Assembly: GCA_041486365.1 (NCBI GenBank)
Contig: JBGPLH010000035.1
Coordinates: 1 to 16,550, forward strand
Direction of reading: 5' to 3'
DNA: 16,550 nt
Origin: JBGPLH01 sp041486365 [NCBI: Thermodesulfobacteriota bacterium]
GTDB taxonomy: Bacteria; JAUYMQ01
In this document: in pieces, positions 3 to 7,382 of the stretch
Numbering within the stretch: the stretch's first letter is position 1
Layout of the letters: each line of letters opens with the position of its first letter
Notes under the pieces: generated by a model
The model's input: only the letters and a program-made list of their open reading frames with translations
The model's database searches: none
Told to the model about the DNA's origin: nothing
Position numbers and translations under genes: made by a program

Positions 3-833
3 CGGGTGATCGAGAGTCTGGGCGGTCGGGCCCAGGAGATCGGCGAGATCCTGAACGTGATCGACGAGGTGGCGGAGGAGACGAACCTTCTGGCGCTGAA
101 CGCCGCGATCATCGCCGCCCAGGCGGGGGAGCACGGGCGGGGTTTCTCGGTGGTGGCCGACGAGATCAAGGACCTGGCCGAGCGGGTGGGGTCGAGCACG
201 AAGGAGATCGGCAAGCTGATCCGGGCCGTGCAGGAGGAGTCGGGCAACGCGGTGAGCGCGGTGCGGCGGGGCTCGGAGATGGTGGCGACGGGGGTGAAGC
301 TCTCGCGGGAGGCGGGGAGCGCGCTGGAGGGGATCACGGCGAGCGCCCGGCGCTCCGGCGAGATGGTGGGCGAGATCGCCGCCGCCACGACGGAGCAGTC
401 GAAGGGATCGATGGGCGTCATGAGCGCCATGGAGCGCGTGCGTGAGATGACCACGCAGATCCGCTCGGCGATGGAGGAGCAGGCGCACGGGTCGGAGCAG
501 GTGATGCACGCATCCGAGTCGATGCGCGAGGTGGCGAAGCAGGTGCGGGAGACGATCCGGGAGCAGGCGCGGGGGTCGGGCCGGATCACCGCGAACATCG
601 AGAACATCCGGGAGATGGTCGACCAGATCAACCACGCGATCCAGGAGCAGCGGCGGGGAACGGAAACCGCCGTGATGGCCCTGGAGCGAATCCGCGACCG
701 CACCGAGCGGAACGTCGGCGCCGCCTCCCAGATGAGCGAGGCGGTGAAGGCGCTCATCGAGCAGGCCGAGGTGCTCAAGGCCGAGGTGAGCCGGTTCAAG
801 TTCGAGCGGCCTGTCGAGAACGCCGCCGCGTGA
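3..833 (+). CDS. Methyl-accepting chemotaxis protein, C-terminal part (5' end outside window)
   Basis: This is the cytoplasmic signalling domain of a chemoreceptor. It controls CheA kinase through CheW and is methylated by CheR and demethylated by CheB. The reading frame is open to the left edge, so the sensor, any membrane segments and the HAMP region are missing; a GTG at 6 is an internal codon. The hairpin tip is unmistakable ([11 protein letters not shown], then [21 protein letters not shown], about residues 25-60 of the visible part). At the tip the usual NAAIEAARAGE reads [11 protein letters not shown]. After the tip about 210 residues of uninterrupted heptad coiled coil follow, unusually long for a C-terminal arm, including four 28-residue repeats. 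The protein ends in [13 protein letters not shown], without a CheR-binding pentapeptide of the NWETF type. CheR and CheB lie downstream in the same direction. Family assignment is secure; the ligand is unknown. Confidence 0.95.
390..725 (+). repeat. Four tandem 84-bp (28-residue) coding repeats in the MCP
   Basis: The units are 390-473, 474-557, 558-641 and 642-725. Each encodes 28 residues with the pattern xEQxxGSxxVxxAxExIREMxx followed by QIRxAI. The period is exactly four heptads, with no insertion between units. Conservation is at protein level; the DNA has diverged, so this is an old duplication or strong structural constraint rather than a recent expansion. Confidence 0.8.
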
Positions 834-931: not shown

Positions 932-2014
932 ATGATCGTCGCGTGTCCTTCCTGCAAGGCGAAGTTCCGGATAGATGAATCGCGGATCCAGCCGCCCGGT
1001 GTCCGGCTCCGGTGCGCCCGCTGCGAGACGATGTTCGCCGTGCGAAAGCGCGTCGTTGACGCCGCGCCCGTGGTGGAGCGGGAGACGGCGGACGCCGCCG
1101 CCGCGCGTGCGGACATTGCGGCCGCGGGGCCCAAGATCCTCATCGCCCACGAGAGCATGGCGTTCCTCACGGGCGTGCGAGCCCAGCTGGAGCGGGAAGG
1201 GTACGAGGTGCTCGCCGCCCGGGACGGCGTCGAGGCACTCATGCGCATTCAGCGCGAGCTGCCGCGGGCCGTGGTGATCGATACCGCGCTCCCCAAGATG
1301 TACGGCTTCGAAATCTGCGAGTTCCTGAAGCGCAACGAGAGCCTCCGCGGCATTCGGGTGGTGCTCGTGGCCTCGGACAATGGCAGGGCGCGGTACAAGC
1401 GGAACCCCGGGAACCTCTACGGGGCGGACGATTACCTCGAGATCCACGACATCCCGAGCGCGCTGCCGGGGATTCTGCGCCGACTTCTCGGCGAGGAGCC
1501 GGCCGCGACGCCCTCCGGGCAGGAGGCGGAGAGTGCGAAGGCCGGGTCCGGCGATGTGTCGCCGGAGAGGGCGGAGAGTCGCGCCGCCCCGGGCGAGCTC
1601 CACGCCCGGAAAACCCCGCCACCCGCTCCGGCCGCGGCGGTGCGGCCCGCGCGGGCGCCGGCGGCCGACGACGGCCTCGAGCCGGAGCGTGAGAAGGCGC
1701 GGCGGCTCGCGCGGATCATCGTCAGCGATATCGCGCTCTACAACGAATCGGTGATTCAGGAGGGAGTCCGGAACGGCCGGCTCCTGGAGATGCTGCGCGA
1801 TGACCTCGAGGAAGGCTATCGCCTCTTCCGGACACGCGTCCCCGCCTCGATCGCGGAGGAGCGGGACTACGTCCGGGAGGCGCTGATGGCCCTCATCGAG
1901 AAGAAGCGCCGGGCCGCGGCGGACGCGGGCGGCGCTCCCGGCGCGCCCGCGGGAGAGGCGTGGGACCGGGGCGACGGGTCGTCCGGCGCCGGGGTGGAAG
2001 ATGATTCGTTCTGA
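932..2014 (+). CDS. Zinc-ribbon (MJ0042-type) plus degenerate receiver-domain protein
   Basis: A 360-residue cytoplasmic protein in the chemosensory operon. Residues 1-35 form an MJ0042-type zinc ribbon (C5, C8, C28, C31). Residues 67-185 are a CheY-like receiver whose phosphoacceptor aspartate is D117 (VVIDTALPKM). The receiver is incomplete: the acidic pair reads H73-E74, the Thr/Ser switch position is A147, and the invariant Lys after GADDYLE is I171. Phosphorylation-dependent switching is therefore doubtful. An Ala/Pro/Arg-rich linker (about 185-250) leads to a helical C-terminal domain starting KARRLARIIVSDIALYNESV, a segment I recall from other deltaproteobacterial zinc-ribbon proteins. 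The start is ATG with GGGGAG four bases upstream. The 3' end overlaps the HEAT gene by 14 bp, so the two are probably translationally coupled. Precise role unknown. Confidence 0.85.
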   Translation: MIVACPSCKAKFRIDESRIQPPGVRLRCARCETMFAVRKRVVDAAPVVERETADAAAARADIAAAGPKILIAHESMAFLTGVRAQLEREGYEVLAARDGVEALMRIQRELPRAVVIDTALPKMYGFEICEFLKRNESLRGIRVVLVASDNGRARYKRNPGNLYGADDYLEIHDIPSALPGILRRLLGEEPAATPSGQEAESAKAGSGDVSPERAESRAAPGELHARKTPPPAPAAAVRPARAPAADDGLEPEREKARRLARIIVSDIALYNESVIQEGVRNGRLLEMLRDDLEEGYRLFRTRVPASIAEERDYVREALMALIEKKRRAAADAGGAPGAPAGEAWDRGDGSSGAGVEDDSF

Positions 2015-4019
2015 GGAGATGCGGGCGCGGCTGCGCGACCCGGACGAGGAGCGGCGGCGGCAGGCCGTCGAGTCGATCGCCGGCCTCCGGGAGGACGGTG
2101 CGCTCGACCTCCTCGTCCAGGCGCTCGGGGACGAAAGCTGGCGCGTCCGCAAGACCGCCGTCGACGCGATCCTGTGCCTGGGGGACGTGGCCCTGGTGGT
2201 TGACGCCCTCGTGGGCGCTCTGAACGCCGATGAGAACGCGGGGCTCCGCAACTCGGCGGTGGAGGCGCTGATCCGCGTGGGCGAGCCGGCCGTGCCGGCC
2301 CTCCTCAAGAAGTCCGCGGATCCGAGCGCCGACGTCCGCAAGTTCATCATCGACGTTCTCGGCGGGATCGGCGACGCGAGCGCCCTGGGTGCCCTCGTCG
2401 AGGCGCTCGGGGACCCCGACGAGAACGTGCGGTCGGCGGCCGCCGAGAACCTCGGCTTGATCGGCGGCGAGGACGCCGTCCGCGCATTGCGCGCGAACCT
2501 CGATCGCGACGATCTGCTGCTCCAGTACACGTCCCTGCAGGCCCTCGCCCGGATCGGCCGCGGGATCCCCCTGGATAGCCTGATCCCGCTCCTCGGTCGC
2601 CCGCTCCTCCGGAAGGTCGTCTACGAGTGCCTCGCCTACGTGCCCGCGCTGCGCGCCGTCGATCTCCTGCTGGAGGGCATGCGCGATCGCTCCCGCGCCA
2701 ACCGGGCCGCGGCCGCCATGGCGCTCGTGAAGATCGCGGGCGCGGGACCGGAGCTCGCCCGGATTGTTGCGGAGCGGCTCCGCGGCATGCGCGACCAGGT
2801 CGACGTGGCCGAGCTCGTGGAGGATCTGCGCACGCCGAGCCTGAATCGTCGGATCGGCTTCGTGCAGATCCTCGGGTTCCTCGGGGGCCCGGCCGCCGTG
2901 CTGGTTCTGCTCTCAGCCGCGGAGGACGAAGGCATGCGCGGCCACGCGATGGACGCGCTCGTCGGGATGGGCGGGGAGGCCGCCGCGGTGCTGCTCGAGC
3001 GGTACGGCGAGCTGGAGGGAGAGAGCCGCGCGATCGCCTGCGCGGTGCTCGGGGACCTTGGCGCTTCCCAGGCAGCCGGGGCGCTGGCCGGATCGGTCGA
3101 CGATCCGTCGCCGGAGGTGCGCGCCGCCGCCGCGGGGGCTCTCGGCAAGATCGCCGCCATCGGAAACGCGGCGCGCCTGTTGCCCCTGCTGGACGACCCC
3201 GTGGAGGAGGTGCAGGACGCCGCGGTGACAGCGCTCGCCCGCGCGGCGGCGGCGGATCCCTCGGTGATTCTCGAGGCGCTCGCATCTCCCGACGCGGAAG
3301 CCGGCGCCACCTTCCGCGCGAACCTCGCGCGGGTGCTCGGCGAGTGCCGGGCCGCCGCCGGGGCCGATGCGCTTCTCCTGCTGGCGAAGGACGAGGACAA
3401 GCGGGTGCGGCGCTCGGCGCTCGAGGCGCTCGGGCGGATCGATTTCGGACGCTTCACGGAGGCGTTCACCGTCGCGCTCACCGACGAGTGCCCCGAGGTG
3501 CGGCGCGTGACGGCGGAGATGTGGGGCGCGAACCATCCGCCGCGGGCCCTGGACAACCTCGGGCGCATGCTGCGGGATGAGGACCTCTGGGTGCGCTGTG
3601 CGGCCATCCGGGGGCTGGGCGAGAGCGGGGACTCGGCGGCGCTACCGGTGCTGCGCGCATCCGCGGACGCGGTGGACGGTATCGAGCTGATCACGGGGAT
3701 CGAGGCGATCGCGCGGCTGGCGGGCGCGGCAGCGCTCCCCGACCTGCGCGCCCGGCTCGGGCATGAGGACCCCGAAGTGGTGAAAGTCGCGCTCGACCTG
3801 ATCGCGCGGCTCGAACCGGCGGCGGGGGAGGAGGTGGCGGCGGAGGTGATCGCGCTGCTCGATCACCACGATCCGGAGGTGCGCTTCGCGGCGGTTCGCT
3901 TCGCGGCGGAGCGCCCGGGGATGCATGCGCTGCCTGCGATGCGCCGTCGCCGGGACGAGGAGCGGGACCCCGCGGTGCGCGAGGCACTCCTGTGCGCGCT
4001 GGAACGACTGGAGCGGTAG
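2001..4019 (+). CDS. HEAT-repeat protein of the chemosensory operon
   Basis: A 672-residue protein made almost wholly of PBS-lyase-type HEAT repeats with a period of about 31 residues. Recurrent signatures include VRKTAVDAI, LRNSAVEALIRVG, VRKFIIDVLGGIG, VRSAAAENLGLIG and VRAAAAGALGKIA; by length about 20 units fit. No signal peptide, membrane segment or catalytic domain is visible, so it should be a cytoplasmic alpha-solenoid that binds proteins. Its position between the zinc-ribbon/receiver gene and cheR, with a 14-bp overlap at its 5' end, suggests it acts with this pathway, for example as a scaffold or as an adaptor for one of the receivers; that is inference. The start is taken as ATG 2001 with GGTGGAAG just upstream; an in-frame ATG at 2019 is possible. 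Similar repeats occur in phycobilin lyases, but nothing in the context supports that role. Confidence 0.85.
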   Translation: MIRSEEMRARLRDPDEERRRQAVESIAGLREDGALDLLVQALGDESWRVRKTAVDAILCLGDVALVVDALVGALNADENAGLRNSAVEALIRVGEPAVPALLKKSADPSADVRKFIIDVLGGIGDASALGALVEALGDPDENVRSAAAENLGLIGGEDAVRALRANLDRDDLLLQYTSLQALARIGRGIPLDSLIPLLGRPLLRKVVYECLAYVPALRAVDLLLEGMRDRSRANRAAAAMALVKIAGAGPELARIVAERLRGMRDQVDVAELVEDLRTPSLNRRIGFVQILGFLGGPAAVLVLLSAAEDEGMRGHAMDALVGMGGEAAAVLLERYGELEGESRAIACAVLGDLGASQAAGALAGSVDDPSPEVRAAAAGALGKIAAIGNAARLLPLLDDPVEEVQDAAVTALARAAAADPSVILEALASPDAEAGATFRANLARVLGECRAAAGADALLLLAKDEDKRVRRSALEALGRIDFGRFTEAFTVALTDECPEVRRVTAEMWGANHPPRALDNLGRMLRDEDLWVRCAAIRGLGESGDSAALPVLRASADAVDGIELITGIEAIARLAGAAALPDLRARLGHEDPEVVKVALDLIARLEPAAGEEVAAEVIALLDHHDPEVRFAAVRFAAERPGMHALPAMRRRRDEERDPAVREALLCALERLER

Positions 4020-4077
4020 GGGCAGAGCGGGTGAAACGGAACGACGGGGAAACCCCCCGGCCAACCGCAGGACGAGC

Positions 4078-4974
4078 ATGAGCTTCGAGGCCTTCAAGCC
4101 CAATGCGCCCGAGACGCCGGCTGGCGAGCCGTTGGGGATGAACGACGAGGATTTCCGCCTGTTCCGGGACTTCATCCGGGCGCAGTGCGGGATCTACTTC
4201 GGCGATTCATCGAAGTTCATCCTCGAGAAGCGGATCGGGCGGCTGCTCCAGCGGCACCGCCTGCGCCGATATCGCGACTACTACTACTACCTCCTGTACG
4301 ACCGGCGCCGGGGCGAGGAGCTCGCCGAGGTGGTCGACGCGATCACGACGAACGAGACTTACTTCTTCCGGGAGGATCGTCAGCTCAAGGCCTTCTCGGA
4401 CGAGATACTTCCCGAGCTGCACGCGCGGAAGCTCGCCCGCGGCGACCGGTCGCTTCACCTCTGGAGCGCCGGCTGCTCGACCGGCGAGGAGCCCTACACA
4501 CTCGCGGCGCTGATTCTAGAGTCGCGCCTGTTCGCCGGCTGGCGGGTGGAGATCTTCGCCAGCGACATCAACCGGCGCGTGTTGCAGGCGGCGCGCAAGG
4601 GGATCTACGGCGCATCGTCCTTCCGCGTGGCCCCGCGCGAAGCCGTGGAGCGCCACTTCATCGAGAAGGACGGGAAGTGGCGGATCTCGGACGAGATCAA
4701 GCGGTACGTTTCCTTCAGCCATCTGAACCTGCTCGACCGGACGAAGATCGGGCTGCTCGCCACGATGGACGTGATCTGCTGCCGGAACGTGATCATCTAC
4801 TTCGACGCCGAGGCGAAGAAGGAGGTGATCCATGGATTCCACGAGAAGCTCGCGCCGGGCGGATACCTGATGCTCGGGCACTCGGAATCGCTCATCAACA
4901 TCTCCGCCGCCTTCAAGCTGCGGCACTTCAAGAATGATCTCATCTACCAAAAGCCGGGGAAGCCGACGCCATGA
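4078..4974 (+). CDS. cheR: Chemotaxis protein methyltransferase CheR
   Basis: Transfers methyl groups from S-adenosylmethionine to glutamates of chemoreceptors, the adaptation arm of chemosensing. The 298-residue product has the helical CheR N-domain (DFRLFRDFIRAQCGIYF) and the classical catalytic domain. Visible motifs are TTNETYFFRE, the SAM-binding LWSAGCSTGEEPYTLA, FASDINRRVL, FSHLNLLDR, DVICCRNVIIYFD and GYLMLGHSES. Length fits a plain CheR with no TPR or fused domain. The start is ATG 4078 with AGGA five bases upstream; the frame is open further left but that stretch lies inside the HEAT gene, and ATG 4138 is a weaker alternative. The stop overlaps the cheB start in an ATGA, so cheR and cheB are coupled. 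The likely substrate is the MCP at the left edge. Confidence 0.97.
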   Translation: MSFEAFKPNAPETPAGEPLGMNDEDFRLFRDFIRAQCGIYFGDSSKFILEKRIGRLLQRHRLRRYRDYYYYLLYDRRRGEELAEVVDAITTNETYFFREDRQLKAFSDEILPELHARKLARGDRSLHLWSAGCSTGEEPYTLAALILESRLFAGWRVEIFASDINRRVLQAARKGIYGASSFRVAPREAVERHFIEKDGKWRISDEIKRYVSFSHLNLLDRTKIGLLATMDVICCRNVIIYFDAEAKKEVIHGFHEKLAPGGYLMLGHSESLINISAAFKLRHFKNDLIYQKPGKPTP

Positions 4975-6065
4975 CGAACGATTTCAGGCCAAGGAAGATC
5001 CGCGTGCTGGTGGTGGACGACTCAGCCTATAACCGGCGCATGATCACGAAGATCCTCGAGCGATCGCCCTTCATCGAAGTGGTGGGGTCCGCGGGCGACG
5101 GCGAGGAGGGCTTGCGCCGCGCCCTCGAGAAGAAGCCGGACCTGGTGACGCTCGACCTCGAGATGCCTCGGATGGACGGCTTCAGCTTCCTGAGGATCCT
5201 GATGGCGCGCCAGCCGCTCCCGATCCTCGTCGTGAGCTCGCGGAACGAGGGGGCCAGCGTGTTTCGCGCGCTGGAGCTCGGCGCGGTCGACTTCATCGCC
5301 AAGCCGACGCGCGGGATTTCCAGCGAGCTGGAGACGATCGCCGAGGAGCTGCTCACCAAGGTCCTCTCGATCCGCCAGTTGAGGCTCGACAACGCGCAGA
5401 ATCAGTTCGACTACGCGGCCCACGGACGGAGCGCGCCACCGCCGCCGACCCCCGAGGCGCCCCCGCGGGAGCCCGGTTTCCTGGCCCCGGCGGGCATCGT
5501 GGCGATCGGCTCGTCCACGGGGGGGCCCGGGGCCCTGACTTCTATTCTGTCGAGCATTCCCGCACATCTGCCGATAGGGTACCTCGTGGCCCAGCACATG
5601 CCGCCGGGCTTCACCCGCCCCTTCGCGGAGCGGCTCGACCGATTCACGGAGCTCTCGGTGCGGGAGGCCGCGGGGGGCGAAATGCTCCGGGCGGGACAGG
5701 TGCTGATCGCGCCCGGCGGGATGAACCTGACCGTGGAGCGCCGGGGCGCCGAGGTGGCCGCGGTCCTCTCCAAGCGGAGCGGGGCGGACCGCTACGTCCC
5801 GTCCGTGGACGCGCTGCTCCGGTCGGCCGCGCGGGCCTACGGGCCGGCGTGCCTCGGCGTGATCTTGACGGGCATGGGAGACGACGGGACGGAAGGGGTG
5901 CTCGAAGTGAAACGCCGCAAGGGGATCACGATCGCCGAGTCGGAGGAGTCCAGCGTGATCTTCGGCATGCCGAGGAAGGCGATCTCCAGCGGGGCGGTGG
6001 ATCACGTGCTGCCGCTCGACAAGATCAGCGGCGCCATCGTGTCGCTGTTCTCCAAGGGGAACTAG
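4971..6065 (+). CDS. cheB: Chemotaxis response regulator protein-glutamate methylesterase CheB
   Basis: Removes methyl groups from receptor glutamates (and deamidates glutamines) when phosphorylated by CheA. Residues 9-125 form a complete receiver: D16-D17, phosphoacceptor D62 (VTLDLEMPRMDG), S89 and K111. A Pro-rich linker (about 150-170) joins it to the C-terminal esterase with the catalytic triad S182 (GSSTGGPG), H209 (AQHMPPGFT) and D305 (TGMGDDG). The length of 364 residues is normal. ATG 4971 overlaps the cheR stop by four bases, with GGGGAAG seven bases upstream. All catalytic and phosphorylation residues are present, so the protein should be active. Together with CheR it forms the adaptation pair for the receptor of this operon. 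Confidence 0.97.
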   Translation: MTNDFRPRKIRVLVVDDSAYNRRMITKILERSPFIEVVGSAGDGEEGLRRALEKKPDLVTLDLEMPRMDGFSFLRILMARQPLPILVVSSRNEGASVFRALELGAVDFIAKPTRGISSELETIAEELLTKVLSIRQLRLDNAQNQFDYAAHGRSAPPPPTPEAPPREPGFLAPAGIVAIGSSTGGPGALTSILSSIPAHLPIGYLVAQHMPPGFTRPFAERLDRFTELSVREAAGGEMLRAGQVLIAPGGMNLTVERRGAEVAAVLSKRSGADRYVPSVDALLRSAARAYGPACLGVILTGMGDDGTEGVLEVKRRKGITIAESEESSVIFGMPRKAISSGAVDHVLPLDKISGAIVSLFSKGN

Positions 6066-6072
6066 AACGCCG

Positions 6073-6094
6073 CCCACCCGGACGGCCGGGTGGG
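6073..6094 (+). other. Intercistronic hairpin between cheB and the GAF gene
   Basis: A perfect 9-bp GC-rich stem (CCCACCCGG / CCGGGTGGG) closed by the tetraloop ACGG. It begins seven bases after the cheB stop and ends 16 bases before the next ATG, just ahead of the GGGGAG ribosome-binding site. No T-run follows, so it is not a typical intrinsic terminator. A role in mRNA stability or in tuning translation of the next gene is inference. Confidence 0.6.
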
Positions 6095-6110
6095 ATCGGG
6101 GAGACATCGC

Positions 6111-6947
6111 ATGGACAAACCGGATCGTCCGGACGACAGGTATTCGATCACGACCCGGGCGGAGGAGTTCCTCCAGGTCTTCAAGCGGGGCGCCGAATTC
6201 ACGCAGGAGCTGCTCCGGGAGAACGAGCGCCTGCGCTACCGCCTGGTGCAGCTGGAGGAGAATCTCCGCGAGGCGGAGAAGGCGCCGGTCACGGGAACCG
6301 AGGAGGAGCTGATCCACCGGATCCGTGAGCTGGAGGACGAGCGGCATCACCTCCTGAGTAAGTTCAAGGAGGTGGAGGCGGAGAACAAGGACTTCGCCAA
6401 CCGCTACCTGGAGGTCGAGGAGGAGAACAACAACCTCGCGAATCTCTACGTGGCGAGCTATCAGCTACATTCCACGCTGGACTTCCGTGAGGTGATGCAG
6501 ATCATCCTCGAGATCGTGATCAACCTGATCGGCGCCGAGGAATTCGGGGTCCTGCTGCTCGACGAGAAGACGAACGAGCTCAGGGCCGTCGCCACGGAGG
6601 GGATCCGCAAGGAGGACATCCCGGCCGTGAAGCTCGGCGAGGGACGGATCGGGCGGGCCGCGAAGGAAGGGACGAACCATTTCCCGCAGAAGATCGCCCA
6701 CGAGGGCCCCATCGACCCCCTGGACCCGATGGTCTGCATCCCGCTGAAGATCAAGGAGCACGTGATCGGGGTCATCGCGATCTACAAGCTTCTCCTGCAG
6801 AAAGAGAAGTTCACCCCGCTCGATCTGGAGCTGTTCACGCTGCTCGCGGGCCACGCGGCCACGGCCACGTTCGCCTCGAAGCTCTACTCCGAATCGGAGC
6901 GGAAGCTGTCCACAATCCAGGGGTTCATCGATCTGCTGACCAAGTAG
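6111..6947 (+). CDS. Coiled-coil and GAF domain protein of the chemosensory operon
   Basis: A 278-residue soluble protein. Residues about 18-115 are strongly charged heptad coiled coil (for example ELEDERHHLL and LEVEEENNNLANLY). Residues about 120-268 form a GAF domain starting at SYQLHSTLDFREVMQIILE, with VRLG-like core strands and a typical IPLKIKEHVIGVIAIYK segment. No histidine kinase, GGDEF or receiver domain follows, so it has a sensing or dimerising input without a visible output enzyme. GAF domains bind small ligands or mediate protein contact; the ligand here cannot be read. The start is ATG 6111 with GGGGAG seven bases upstream; a GTG 21 bases earlier lies in the hairpin and is unlikely. 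It stands 45 bp after cheB and 60 bp before the cheY-like gene, suggesting that it feeds or modulates the same pathway. Confidence 0.85.
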   Translation: MDKPDRPDDRYSITTRAEEFLQVFKRGAEFTQELLRENERLRYRLVQLEENLREAEKAPVTGTEEELIHRIRELEDERHHLLSKFKEVEAENKDFANRYLEVEEENNNLANLYVASYQLHSTLDFREVMQIILEIVINLIGAEEFGVLLLDEKTNELRAVATEGIRKEDIPAVKLGEGRIGRAAKEGTNHFPQKIAHEGPIDPLDPMVCIPLKIKEHVIGVIAIYKLLLQKEKFTPLDLELFTLLAGHAATATFASKLYSESERKLSTIQGFIDLLTK

Positions 6948-7007: not shown

Positions 7008-7382
7008 ATGTCGCACAAGGTCCTCATCGTCGAAGACTCCGCCACGATGCGCCAGCTGATCGGGTTCGCGCTCAAGCGCATCCAGGGCGTCGAGATCACC
7101 GAGGCCCAGGACGGGATGGACGGCCTGAAGAAGATCTCGAGCGACAAGTACGATCTCGCCCTGATCGATATCAATATGCCGCTGCTCGACGGCCTCAAGC
7201 TGGTGAAGCTCATCCGGAGCGATCCGCGCTGCAAGGACATCCCCATCGCGATGATCACGACGGAGGGGGCCCGGGAGGATCGCGAGCGGGCGCTTCAGCT
7301 CGGCGCCAACGAGTACCTCACCAAGCCGATCCAGCAGGTGGAAGTGGTGCGCATCGCGCGGTCCCTCCTCGGCATCGGCTGA
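7008..7382 (+). CDS. CheY-like single-domain response regulator
   Basis: A 124-residue stand-alone receiver, the usual size for CheY. All functional residues are there: the acidic pair E9-D10, phosphoacceptor D54 (LALIDINMPLLDG), switch residue T84 (AMITTEG) and K106 (YLTKPIQ). It should be phosphorylated by a CheA-type kinase and pass the signal to a motor or other target. The start is ATG 7008 with a strong purine-rich ribosome-binding stretch (GAAGGAAGAAGAG) directly upstream. It is the last gene of the chemosensory cluster, and the next gene is leuS. In contrast to the receiver at 932-2014, nothing in the phosphorylation site is degenerate, so this is the best candidate for the phosphorylated output of the operon. 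Whether it drives flagella, gliding or another output cannot be decided here. Confidence 0.93.
   Translation: MSHKVLIVEDSATMRQLIGFALKRIQGVEITEAQDGMDGLKKISSDKYDLALIDINMPLLDGLKLVKLIRSDPRCKDIPIAMITTEGAREDRERALQLGANEYLTKPIQQVEVVRIARSLLGIG

What the first reader, a model, noticed from the sequence alone, without database searches (positions are those of the whole stretch)
390..725. Four 28-residue MCP repeats, each opening at a candidate methylation site
The C-terminal arm of the MCP contains four exactly 28-residue units. At each unit boundary there is an EQ pair inside a sequence resembling the receptor methylation consensus (two small residues, xx, E/Q-E/Q, xx, two small residues). [10 protein letters not shown] and [10 protein letters not shown] match it fully; [10 protein letters not shown] and [10 protein letters not shown] each miss one position. 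Four heptads between sites would put them on one face of the helix, 28 residues apart, whereas classical sites are 7 apart. This may be an expanded, periodic adaptation region.
Basis: partly seen in the sequence, partly recalled or inferred. Interest (0 to 1): 0.6.

Follow-up and report, generated by a model that had tools for sequence, protein, structure and literature searches.

The report
Chemoreceptor rod with repeated 28-residue blocks
The repeat is the lengthened stalk of a long-class bacterial chemoreceptor, built from 28-residue blocks that mainly seem to place a glutamine in the helix core, and it is not a row of four proven methylation sites.

Summary
In detail: the truncated MCP (window 3-833) has EQ pairs at residues 131, 159, 187 and 215, exactly 28 apart, and lag-28 similarity beats heptad-preserving shuffles (p 5e-5). 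The C-arm is 32 heptads long, which fits the known long MCP class 64H (40+24H). In 71 non-redundant 64H arms the Q of each pair sits in core position d (70, 59, 65 and 62 of 71; elsewhere at d almost never Q). EQ is thus a repeated core glutamine layer whose first copy corresponds to Tsr E465/Q466, not among the reported Tsr sites. Only the E has the heptad phase of a known site (Tsr E493). Full methylation consensus is rare at these units (1, 5, 7, 3 of 56). Consensus matches in the usual register lie on the other arm of relatives (55 of 56), which the window cuts off. Unit number varies: 40H, 48H, 56H, 64H and 72H receptors mostly carry 1, 2, 3, 4 and 5 units, and the partner arm, where measurable, grows by the same 28 (one extra residue in a subgroup). 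56H and 72H are absent from the 12-class list I saw.

The parts
3..833 (+). C-terminal 276 aa of a methyl-accepting chemotaxis protein; the part before it (sensor, HAMP, N-arm) lies outside the window
   Evidence: PF00015 E 2.1e-40; ORF open at the window edge
129..131 (+). Codon of the hairpin-tip glutamate (residue 43, equivalent of Tsr E391); offset 0 in this report
   Evidence: AGEHGRGF aligns with Tsr AGEQGRGF
393..476 (+). Unit 1 (tip+88 to +115); its EQ is the Tsr E465/Q466 equivalent
477..560 (+). Unit 2 (tip+116 to +143); its E (residue 159, in an E-E pair) lies at the distance from the tip expected of a 40H equivalent of Tsr E493 (102+14); best single C-arm methylation candidate, though E is at +116 in only 12 of 33 40H arms
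561..644 (+). Unit 3 (tip+144 to +171)
645..728 (+). Unit 4 (tip+172 to +199); together with the tail it matches the Tsr arm end at a shift of 98 (14+84)
   Evidence: Tsr offsets 90-126 score best at shift +98
729..833 (+). End of the C-arm and short tail; no NWETF-type CheR tether
   Evidence: translation; tether motif from PMC2577667 passage
932..2014 (+). Zinc-ribbon (MJ0042 type) plus receiver-domain protein
2001..4019 (+). HEAT-repeat protein
4075..4974 (+). CheR methyltransferase (start codon my choice within the ORF 3925-4974)
   Evidence: PF01739 E 1e-56
4971..6065 (+). CheB methylesterase
   Evidence: PF01339 E 3.4e-62
6090..6947 (+). GAF-domain protein, used to find related operons
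7008..7382 (+). CheY-like receiver
   Evidence: PF00072 E 3.5e-28

Best explanation
This is the C-terminal arm of a class 64H (40+24H) chemoreceptor. Shown: relative to a 40H receptor the arm is longer by three 28-residue (four-heptad) blocks; each block opens with E at heptad c and Q at heptad d, usually followed by a small residue at g; in related receptors the opposite arm is longer by the same amount. Inferred: the blocks arose by repeated lengthening with a four-heptad unit, so that both arms keep register. The Q makes a polar core layer every fourth heptad that fixes register between the helices and keeps a very long bundle loosely packed enough to carry a signal. The added length sets the height of the receptor array and so sorts this receptor to its own CheA/CheW array. 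Adaptation by the operon's CheR and CheB most likely acts on the N-arm, whose blocks in relatives resemble Tsr methylation helix 1 (E304/Q311), with the c-position E of C-arm unit 2 as the best extra candidate.
For: C-arm length: 120 of 203 measured hairpins end at tip+222; 34H, 40H and 44H ones end at 117 (14), 138 (33) and 152 (7). Partner arm: distance from HAMP end to tip is 144 in Tsr, 137 for 34H (3 of 14), 158 for 40H (12 of 33), 172 for 44H (1 of 7), 214 for 56H (2 of 4), 242 or 243 for 64H (34 and 40 of 120) and 270 for 72H (11 of 13); for 48H it is 186 (2 of 2) when the last HAMP is aligned on its NSF/NAF motif. Unit number follows length: 40H 1 unit (31 of 33), 48H 2 (2 of 2), 56H 3 (3 of 4), 64H 4 (87 of 120; 26 have 3, 7 have 2), 72H 5 (13 of 13). 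Core layer: in 71 non-redundant 64H arms (of 120) Q occupies d at +89, +117, +145 and +173 in 70, 59, 65 and 62; at 18 other d positions there is one Q in all. Hydrophobicity by phase puts the core at phases 2 and 5 in Tsr, 40H and 64H; Q is phase 5, Tsr sites 297, 304, 311 and 493 are phase 4. N-arm blocks, by inspection: five in 72H, three in 56H, two in 48H and four in L008, a 64H, each with a motif like ETSSTIEQM, resembling Tsr LEETAASMEQL. N-arm consensus matches in 49 non-redundant full 64H hairpins: 56, of which 55 at phase 4; 1.14 per protein against 0.38 in heptad shuffles. AlphaFold model of the L008 hairpin: two helices, 2-230 and 232-454, mean pLDDT 86.5.
Against: The N-arm of this very protein is outside the window, so its length and sites are inferred from relatives. 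The MiST 64H profile was not available, so class is by measured length. pTM of the model is 0.37 and it is a monomer, so it says little about packing. Core burial of Q is deduced from sequence periodicity, not from a structure. 33 of 120 64H arms lack Q in one or two units, and all four EQ are present in only 19 of 71. In 40H receptors 10 of 19 C-arm consensus matches are at phase 4, because an E often precedes the EQ there, so unit 1 can look like a proper site. In one search one of 20 C-arm consensus matches in 64H was at phase 4. Q is common at several other c positions (47 of 71 at +109 counting E/Q), and these were not analysed as sites. The phase of N-arm matches was corrected by one residue for the 243-type (27 of 49 hairpins), which assumes the extra residue lies between sites and tip. 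My arm-end score looks only at heptad-lattice positions. Eight of 203 arms got other lengths (30H, 32H, 38H, 50H, 54H, 58H twice, 62H); L112 and L166 look like miscalled ends, L095 and L164 look truly different, and one of four 56H calls (L194) has one unit.
Confidence: 0.82

Rival explanations
1. One reading: each EQ is a methylation site with Q as acceptor after deamidation, giving a four-site C-arm adaptation ladder.
For: Two of four units match the published consensus fully; EQ conserved in homologues; CheR and CheB in the operon; others use the same consensus to predict sites (PMC6391922 passage).
Against: Q is in core position d, not c; full consensus in 1, 5, 7 and 3 of 56 homologous arms; the same EQ in Tsr (465/466) is not among its reported sites.
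Confidence: 0.06
2. The c-position glutamates E131, E159, E187 and E215 are acceptors, so the C-arm carries a sparse 28-residue ladder of sites in addition to N-arm sites.
For: Same phase as Tsr E493; E conserved at these c positions (63, 56, 63 and 40 of 71) against at most 22 of 71 at 19 other c positions; Rhodobacter TlpT has sites at c found by mass spectrometry in DE and TQ pairs (PMC6829392 passages).
Against: Tsr E465 has the same motif and phase and is not a reported site; the residue before E is not conserved as E/Q; no full consensus in that register at these units in 56 arms.
Confidence: 0.25
3. The 28-residue similarity is only generic coiled-coil periodicity.
For: Any MCP arm has heptads, and A, E, Q and S are common.
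Against: Shuffles that keep heptad position do not reproduce it; copy number tracks arm length in 28-residue steps.
Confidence: 0.03

Closest known systems
MCP class 64H, formerly 40+24H
   Same: C-arm of 32 heptads; the class is recorded for Geobacteraceae and Desulfuromonas (PMC3543383 and PMC8235581 passages), groups that also hold related operons
   Different: No difference found; the N-arm of this protein could not be measured. That 40+24H and 64H are one class is my inference from the sum and the shared hosts
E. coli Tsr (36H)
   Same: Hairpin tip, EQxxG at E465/Q466/G469, heptad phases
   Different: Arm 14 residues shorter before unit 1 and 84 residues shorter after it; one EQ instead of four; the end-anchored equivalent of Tsr E493 (tip+200) is Q here, after S
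Thermotoga maritima MCP structure 2ch7 (TM1143, 44H)
   Same: Best solved relative by sequence, E 1.4e-23; EQ-type pair at unit 1
   Different: In the aligned stretch (window residues 1-190) no EQ at the unit 2 position
Rhodobacter sphaeroides TlpT (36H)
   Same: Shows that acceptors at heptad c need not sit in a canonical E/Q pair (PMC6829392 passages)
   Different: Short class; not compared by sequence here

Membership tests
MCP signalling domain | PF00015 over cut-off | tested here: met
   138.8 bits, cut-off 34.6
MCP class 64H (40+24H) | 32 heptads in the C-arm | tested here: met
   233 residues after the tip; tip-anchored without gaps against relatives whose arms end at tip+222
MCP class 64H (40+24H) | 32 heptads in the N-arm | not testable with these tools
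   N-arm outside the window and no genome held; 242 or 243 in 74 of 120 64H relatives, motif not found in the other 46
MCP class 64H (40+24H) | Score with the MiST class profile | not tested
   Profile not held here; its existence from PMC6943060 passage
Classical methylation site | [ASTG][ASTG]xx[EQ][EQ]xx[ASTG][ASTG] | tested here: inconclusive
   2 of 4 window units match; 1, 5, 7 and 3 of 56 homologous arms at the four units
Classical methylation site | Acceptor, typically the second of the pair, at heptad c | tested here: not met
   Second residue Q at phase 5 (core d); the first residue E is at phase 4 (c)
Classical methylation site | CheR-dependent methyl esterification | not testable with these tools
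   Needs mass spectrometry
CheR-tethering receptor | C-terminal NWETF-like pentapeptide | tested here: not met
   Protein ends in [10 protein letters not shown]

The most novel reading that the evidence does not exclude
Long chemoreceptors are built from a paired 28-residue module: each step adds one block to both arms, with one core glutamine layer on the C-arm and one copy of methylation helix 1 on the N-arm, so rod length and number of adaptation sites rise together from 40H through 48H, 56H and 64H to 72H, a length beyond the class list I saw.
Probability: 0.35. Interest if true: 0.6.

Novelty: new member of a known kind. Interest (0 to 1): 0.36.

Why it matters
It turns a possible new adaptation mechanism into a testable rule about receptor architecture: several length classes above 40H differ by whole four-heptad modules matched in both arms. 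If N-arm sites scale with modules, receptors of 1 to 5 modules would be a natural series for asking how site number and rod length tune adaptation. A 2019 paper states that methylation had been observed only in 36H and 44H receptors (PMC6829392 passage), so adaptation in 64H is open.

Tried and rejected
Protein-pattern scan of genome contigs with the C-arm gave 70 pattern hits and no confirmed relative; plasmid tblastn gave no match; viral contigs none. I then used part of the operon's GAF protein: 387 pattern hits, 229 confirmed, the best 80 kept. A closer relative of the window was sought with the HEAT protein in the phylum of G004 (genome of a Rokubacteria locus): only 2 genomes were searched and the best match was 34% identical, so the source lineage stays unknown.

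I first took the EQ motif, from memory, for a methylation site; the real Tsr sequence and numbering showed it is E465/Q466, which changed the conclusion. A structure job was run on L008 because this protein's N-arm is missing; it gave helices only and no contacts. Fold search was not run, since a coiled coil would match other long helices.

Literature: ten searches. 56H was searched only and 72H; among titles listed there none was a paper on such an MCP class (one search listed 20 of 27, one search listed 15 of 86). A 28-residue module was searched (one paper, a linker) and repeats or duplication (one unrelated paper). The library lacks most subscription journals, so I do not claim that the module or these classes are unreported. 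Alexander and Zhulin 2007, the source of the classes, is not held; what I say of it comes through other papers. Papers seen as passages only: PMC3543383, PMC2577667, PMC8235581, PMC6943060, PMC7666581, PMC3945109, PMC9796306, PMC6391922, PMC1079850, PMC6829392; the rest as search listings.

Biases: the 13 72H hairpins are not a frequency and fall into 4 groups at 75% identity; I fetched 20 regions, about half picked because their match to the 64H profile began late, which suggested longer arms. One search used 244 of 253 loci (dropped: the Tsr locus L105 and the 8 loci of the HEAT search), found 207 hairpins and measured 203; four were dropped for short or masked arms. Hairpins with the same 100 residues round the tip are counted once, and my tip pattern misses divergent tips (in one search a similar pattern found 11 hairpins in 24 loci). 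The arm-end score is my own, looks only at heptad-lattice positions and does not use the EQ motif; units are counted by Q alone. For 48H the automatic HAMP motif hit only earlier HAMP copies (225 and 303); 186 comes from aligning the last copy afterwards.

Full report
What is there. [quoted passage not shown]; PF00015 E 2.1e-40). Downstream on the same strand lie a zinc-ribbon/receiver protein, a HEAT-repeat protein, CheR, CheB, a GAF protein and a CheY-like receiver, then leuS. The four EQ pairs are at residues 131, 159, 187 and 215, exactly 28 apart, and the periodicity is far above heptad-preserving shuffles.

Placing the units. I set offset 0 at the hairpin-tip glutamate (residue 43, Tsr E391). 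EQ then stands at +88, +116, +144 and +172. With the real Tsr sequence positions 297, 304, 311, 493 and 502 carry Q, E, Q, E and E, the sites given in PMC1079850, and the Tsr motif EQSRG is E465-Q466-S-R-G469, at +74. Tsr +60 to +90 fits the window equally well at shifts +14 and +42 (score 48 each) and less well at +98 (34) and +70 (22); the Tsr arm end (+90 to +126) fits best at +98 (37). So the window arm equals a Tsr-like arm plus 14 residues (as in 40H) plus 84 residues, three blocks of 28. That is 32 heptads, the length of class 64H.

Homologues. A scan with part of the operon's GAF protein returned 80 loci, mostly titled Nitrospirae, Desulfuromonadales, Geobacter or Deltaproteobacteria. 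HEAT-CheR-CheB-GAF are neighbours in 68 of 80, with the zinc-ribbon/receiver gene before them in 22; an MCP lies directly before HEAT in 39 and directly before the zinc-ribbon gene, as in the window, in 2 (L008, L079); leuS follows GAF within 3.5 kb in 22 (some loci are cut by contig ends). In 37 non-redundant arms (of 68) an E/Q pair is present at +88, +116, +144 and +172 in 100, 92, 95 and 59%.

Heptad register. Hydrophobicity by phase shows core positions at phases 2 and 5 in Tsr, 40H and 64H. Tsr sites 297, 304, 311 and 493 are at phase 4; PMC6829392 places such sites at heptad c, so phase 5 is d. E502 is at phase 6. In EQ the E is c and the Q is d. In 71 non-redundant 64H arms (of 120) Q fills d at +89, +117, +145 and +173 in 70, 59, 65 and 62; at 18 other d positions one Q occurs in all, and 58 to 71 of 71 are hydrophobic except at +61 (47), +75 (25) and +194 (5). 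E is frequent at c at the same four places (63, 56, 63, 40 of 71; at most 22 at 19 other c positions, though Q is common at some, such as +109). All four Q are present in 48 of 71 and all four EQ in 19 of 71. The array is thus a periodic core glutamine layer with a glutamate beside it.

Methylation. In 56 non-redundant 64H arms (of 87 at that point) the four units match it in 1, 5, 7 and 3, and never with the E as second residue; of 20 C-arm matches in all, 16 were at phase 5, 3 at phase 6 and 1 at phase 4. In 49 full 64H hairpins the N-arm has 56 matches, 55 at phase 4 after a one-residue correction for the 243-type; the C-arm has 22, of which 18 at phase 5 and none at phase 4. In 72H (4 non-redundant) all 14 N-arm matches are at phase 4 and all 5 C-arm ones at phase 5. 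In 40H (12) the N-arm has 8 of 9 at phase 4 and the C-arm 10 at phase 4 and 9 at phase 5; there an E often precedes the EQ, so unit 1 of 40H receptors could be a true site. That last point counts against a purely structural reading of the motif.

Ladder. Over 203 measured hairpins, arms ending at +138, +166, +194, +222 and +250 (40H, 48H, 56H, 64H, 72H) carry 1 (31 of 33), 2 (2 of 2), 3 (3 of 4), 4 (87 of 120) and 5 (13 of 13) Q units. The HAMP-to-tip distance, a separate measure of the other arm, is 158 (12 of 33), 186 (2 of 2, aligned afterwards), 214 (2 of 4), 242 or 243 (74 of 120) and 270 (11 of 13). 72H occurs in Geobacter and Geomonas genomes and others of their class, and in one genome titled Nitrospirae (L109, from the genome of L078). 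By inspection the N-arms show as many blocks of the methylation-helix-1 type. The MiST list of 12 classes contains 48H and 64H but not 56H or 72H (PMC6943060 passage); I cannot say that nobody has noted them.

Mechanism. Shown: length, copy number, register by periodicity, and conservation. Inferred: that blocks spread by duplication; that Q layers fix register and keep the long bundle dynamic; that length sets array height and so receptor sorting (an idea put forward for Geobacter classes in a PMC2577667 passage); that adaptation acts mostly on the N-arm. For this protein the N-arm is unseen.

Verdict. The modest new part is the ladder of modules with core glutamine layers.

Noticed in passing
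L040:327-3209 and L070:111-2951: In Nitrospirota the operon's 64H receptor carries a phosphonate-binding type of periplasmic-binding domain (PF12974, E 2.3e-62 and 1.6e-62) after the signalling hairpin, an unusual place for a sensor domain. Only these two were scanned; 32 of 69 hairpins in the loci have at least 470 residues after the tip.
   Followed up: partly
L082, L109, L155, L234-L239, L242-L245: Receptors with 36 heptads per arm (72H) and five EQ units, longer than any class in the MiST list.
   Followed up: partly
L095 and L164: Receptors with tip sequence EYGKSFGVVA and about 192 residues after the tip, in which the third EQ is RQ; the length does not fit the ladder.
   Followed up: no
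L001:2118-3727: In Geobacter an AAA ATPase and a CheW lie upstream of the zinc-ribbon/receiver gene (starts near 4688) and no MCP was found there; the 0.96 kb between CheW and that gene was not examined.
   Followed up: partly
window 932-4019: A zinc-ribbon/receiver fusion (next to HEAT in 24 of 80 loci) and a HEAT-repeat protein (next to CheR in 70 of 80) accompany this chemosensory operon; roles unknown.
   Followed up: no
64H N-arms in the loci: HAMP-to-tip distance is 243 in 40 and 242 in 34 of 74 measured 64H receptors, suggesting a one-residue insertion in the N-arm of a subgroup.
   Followed up: no
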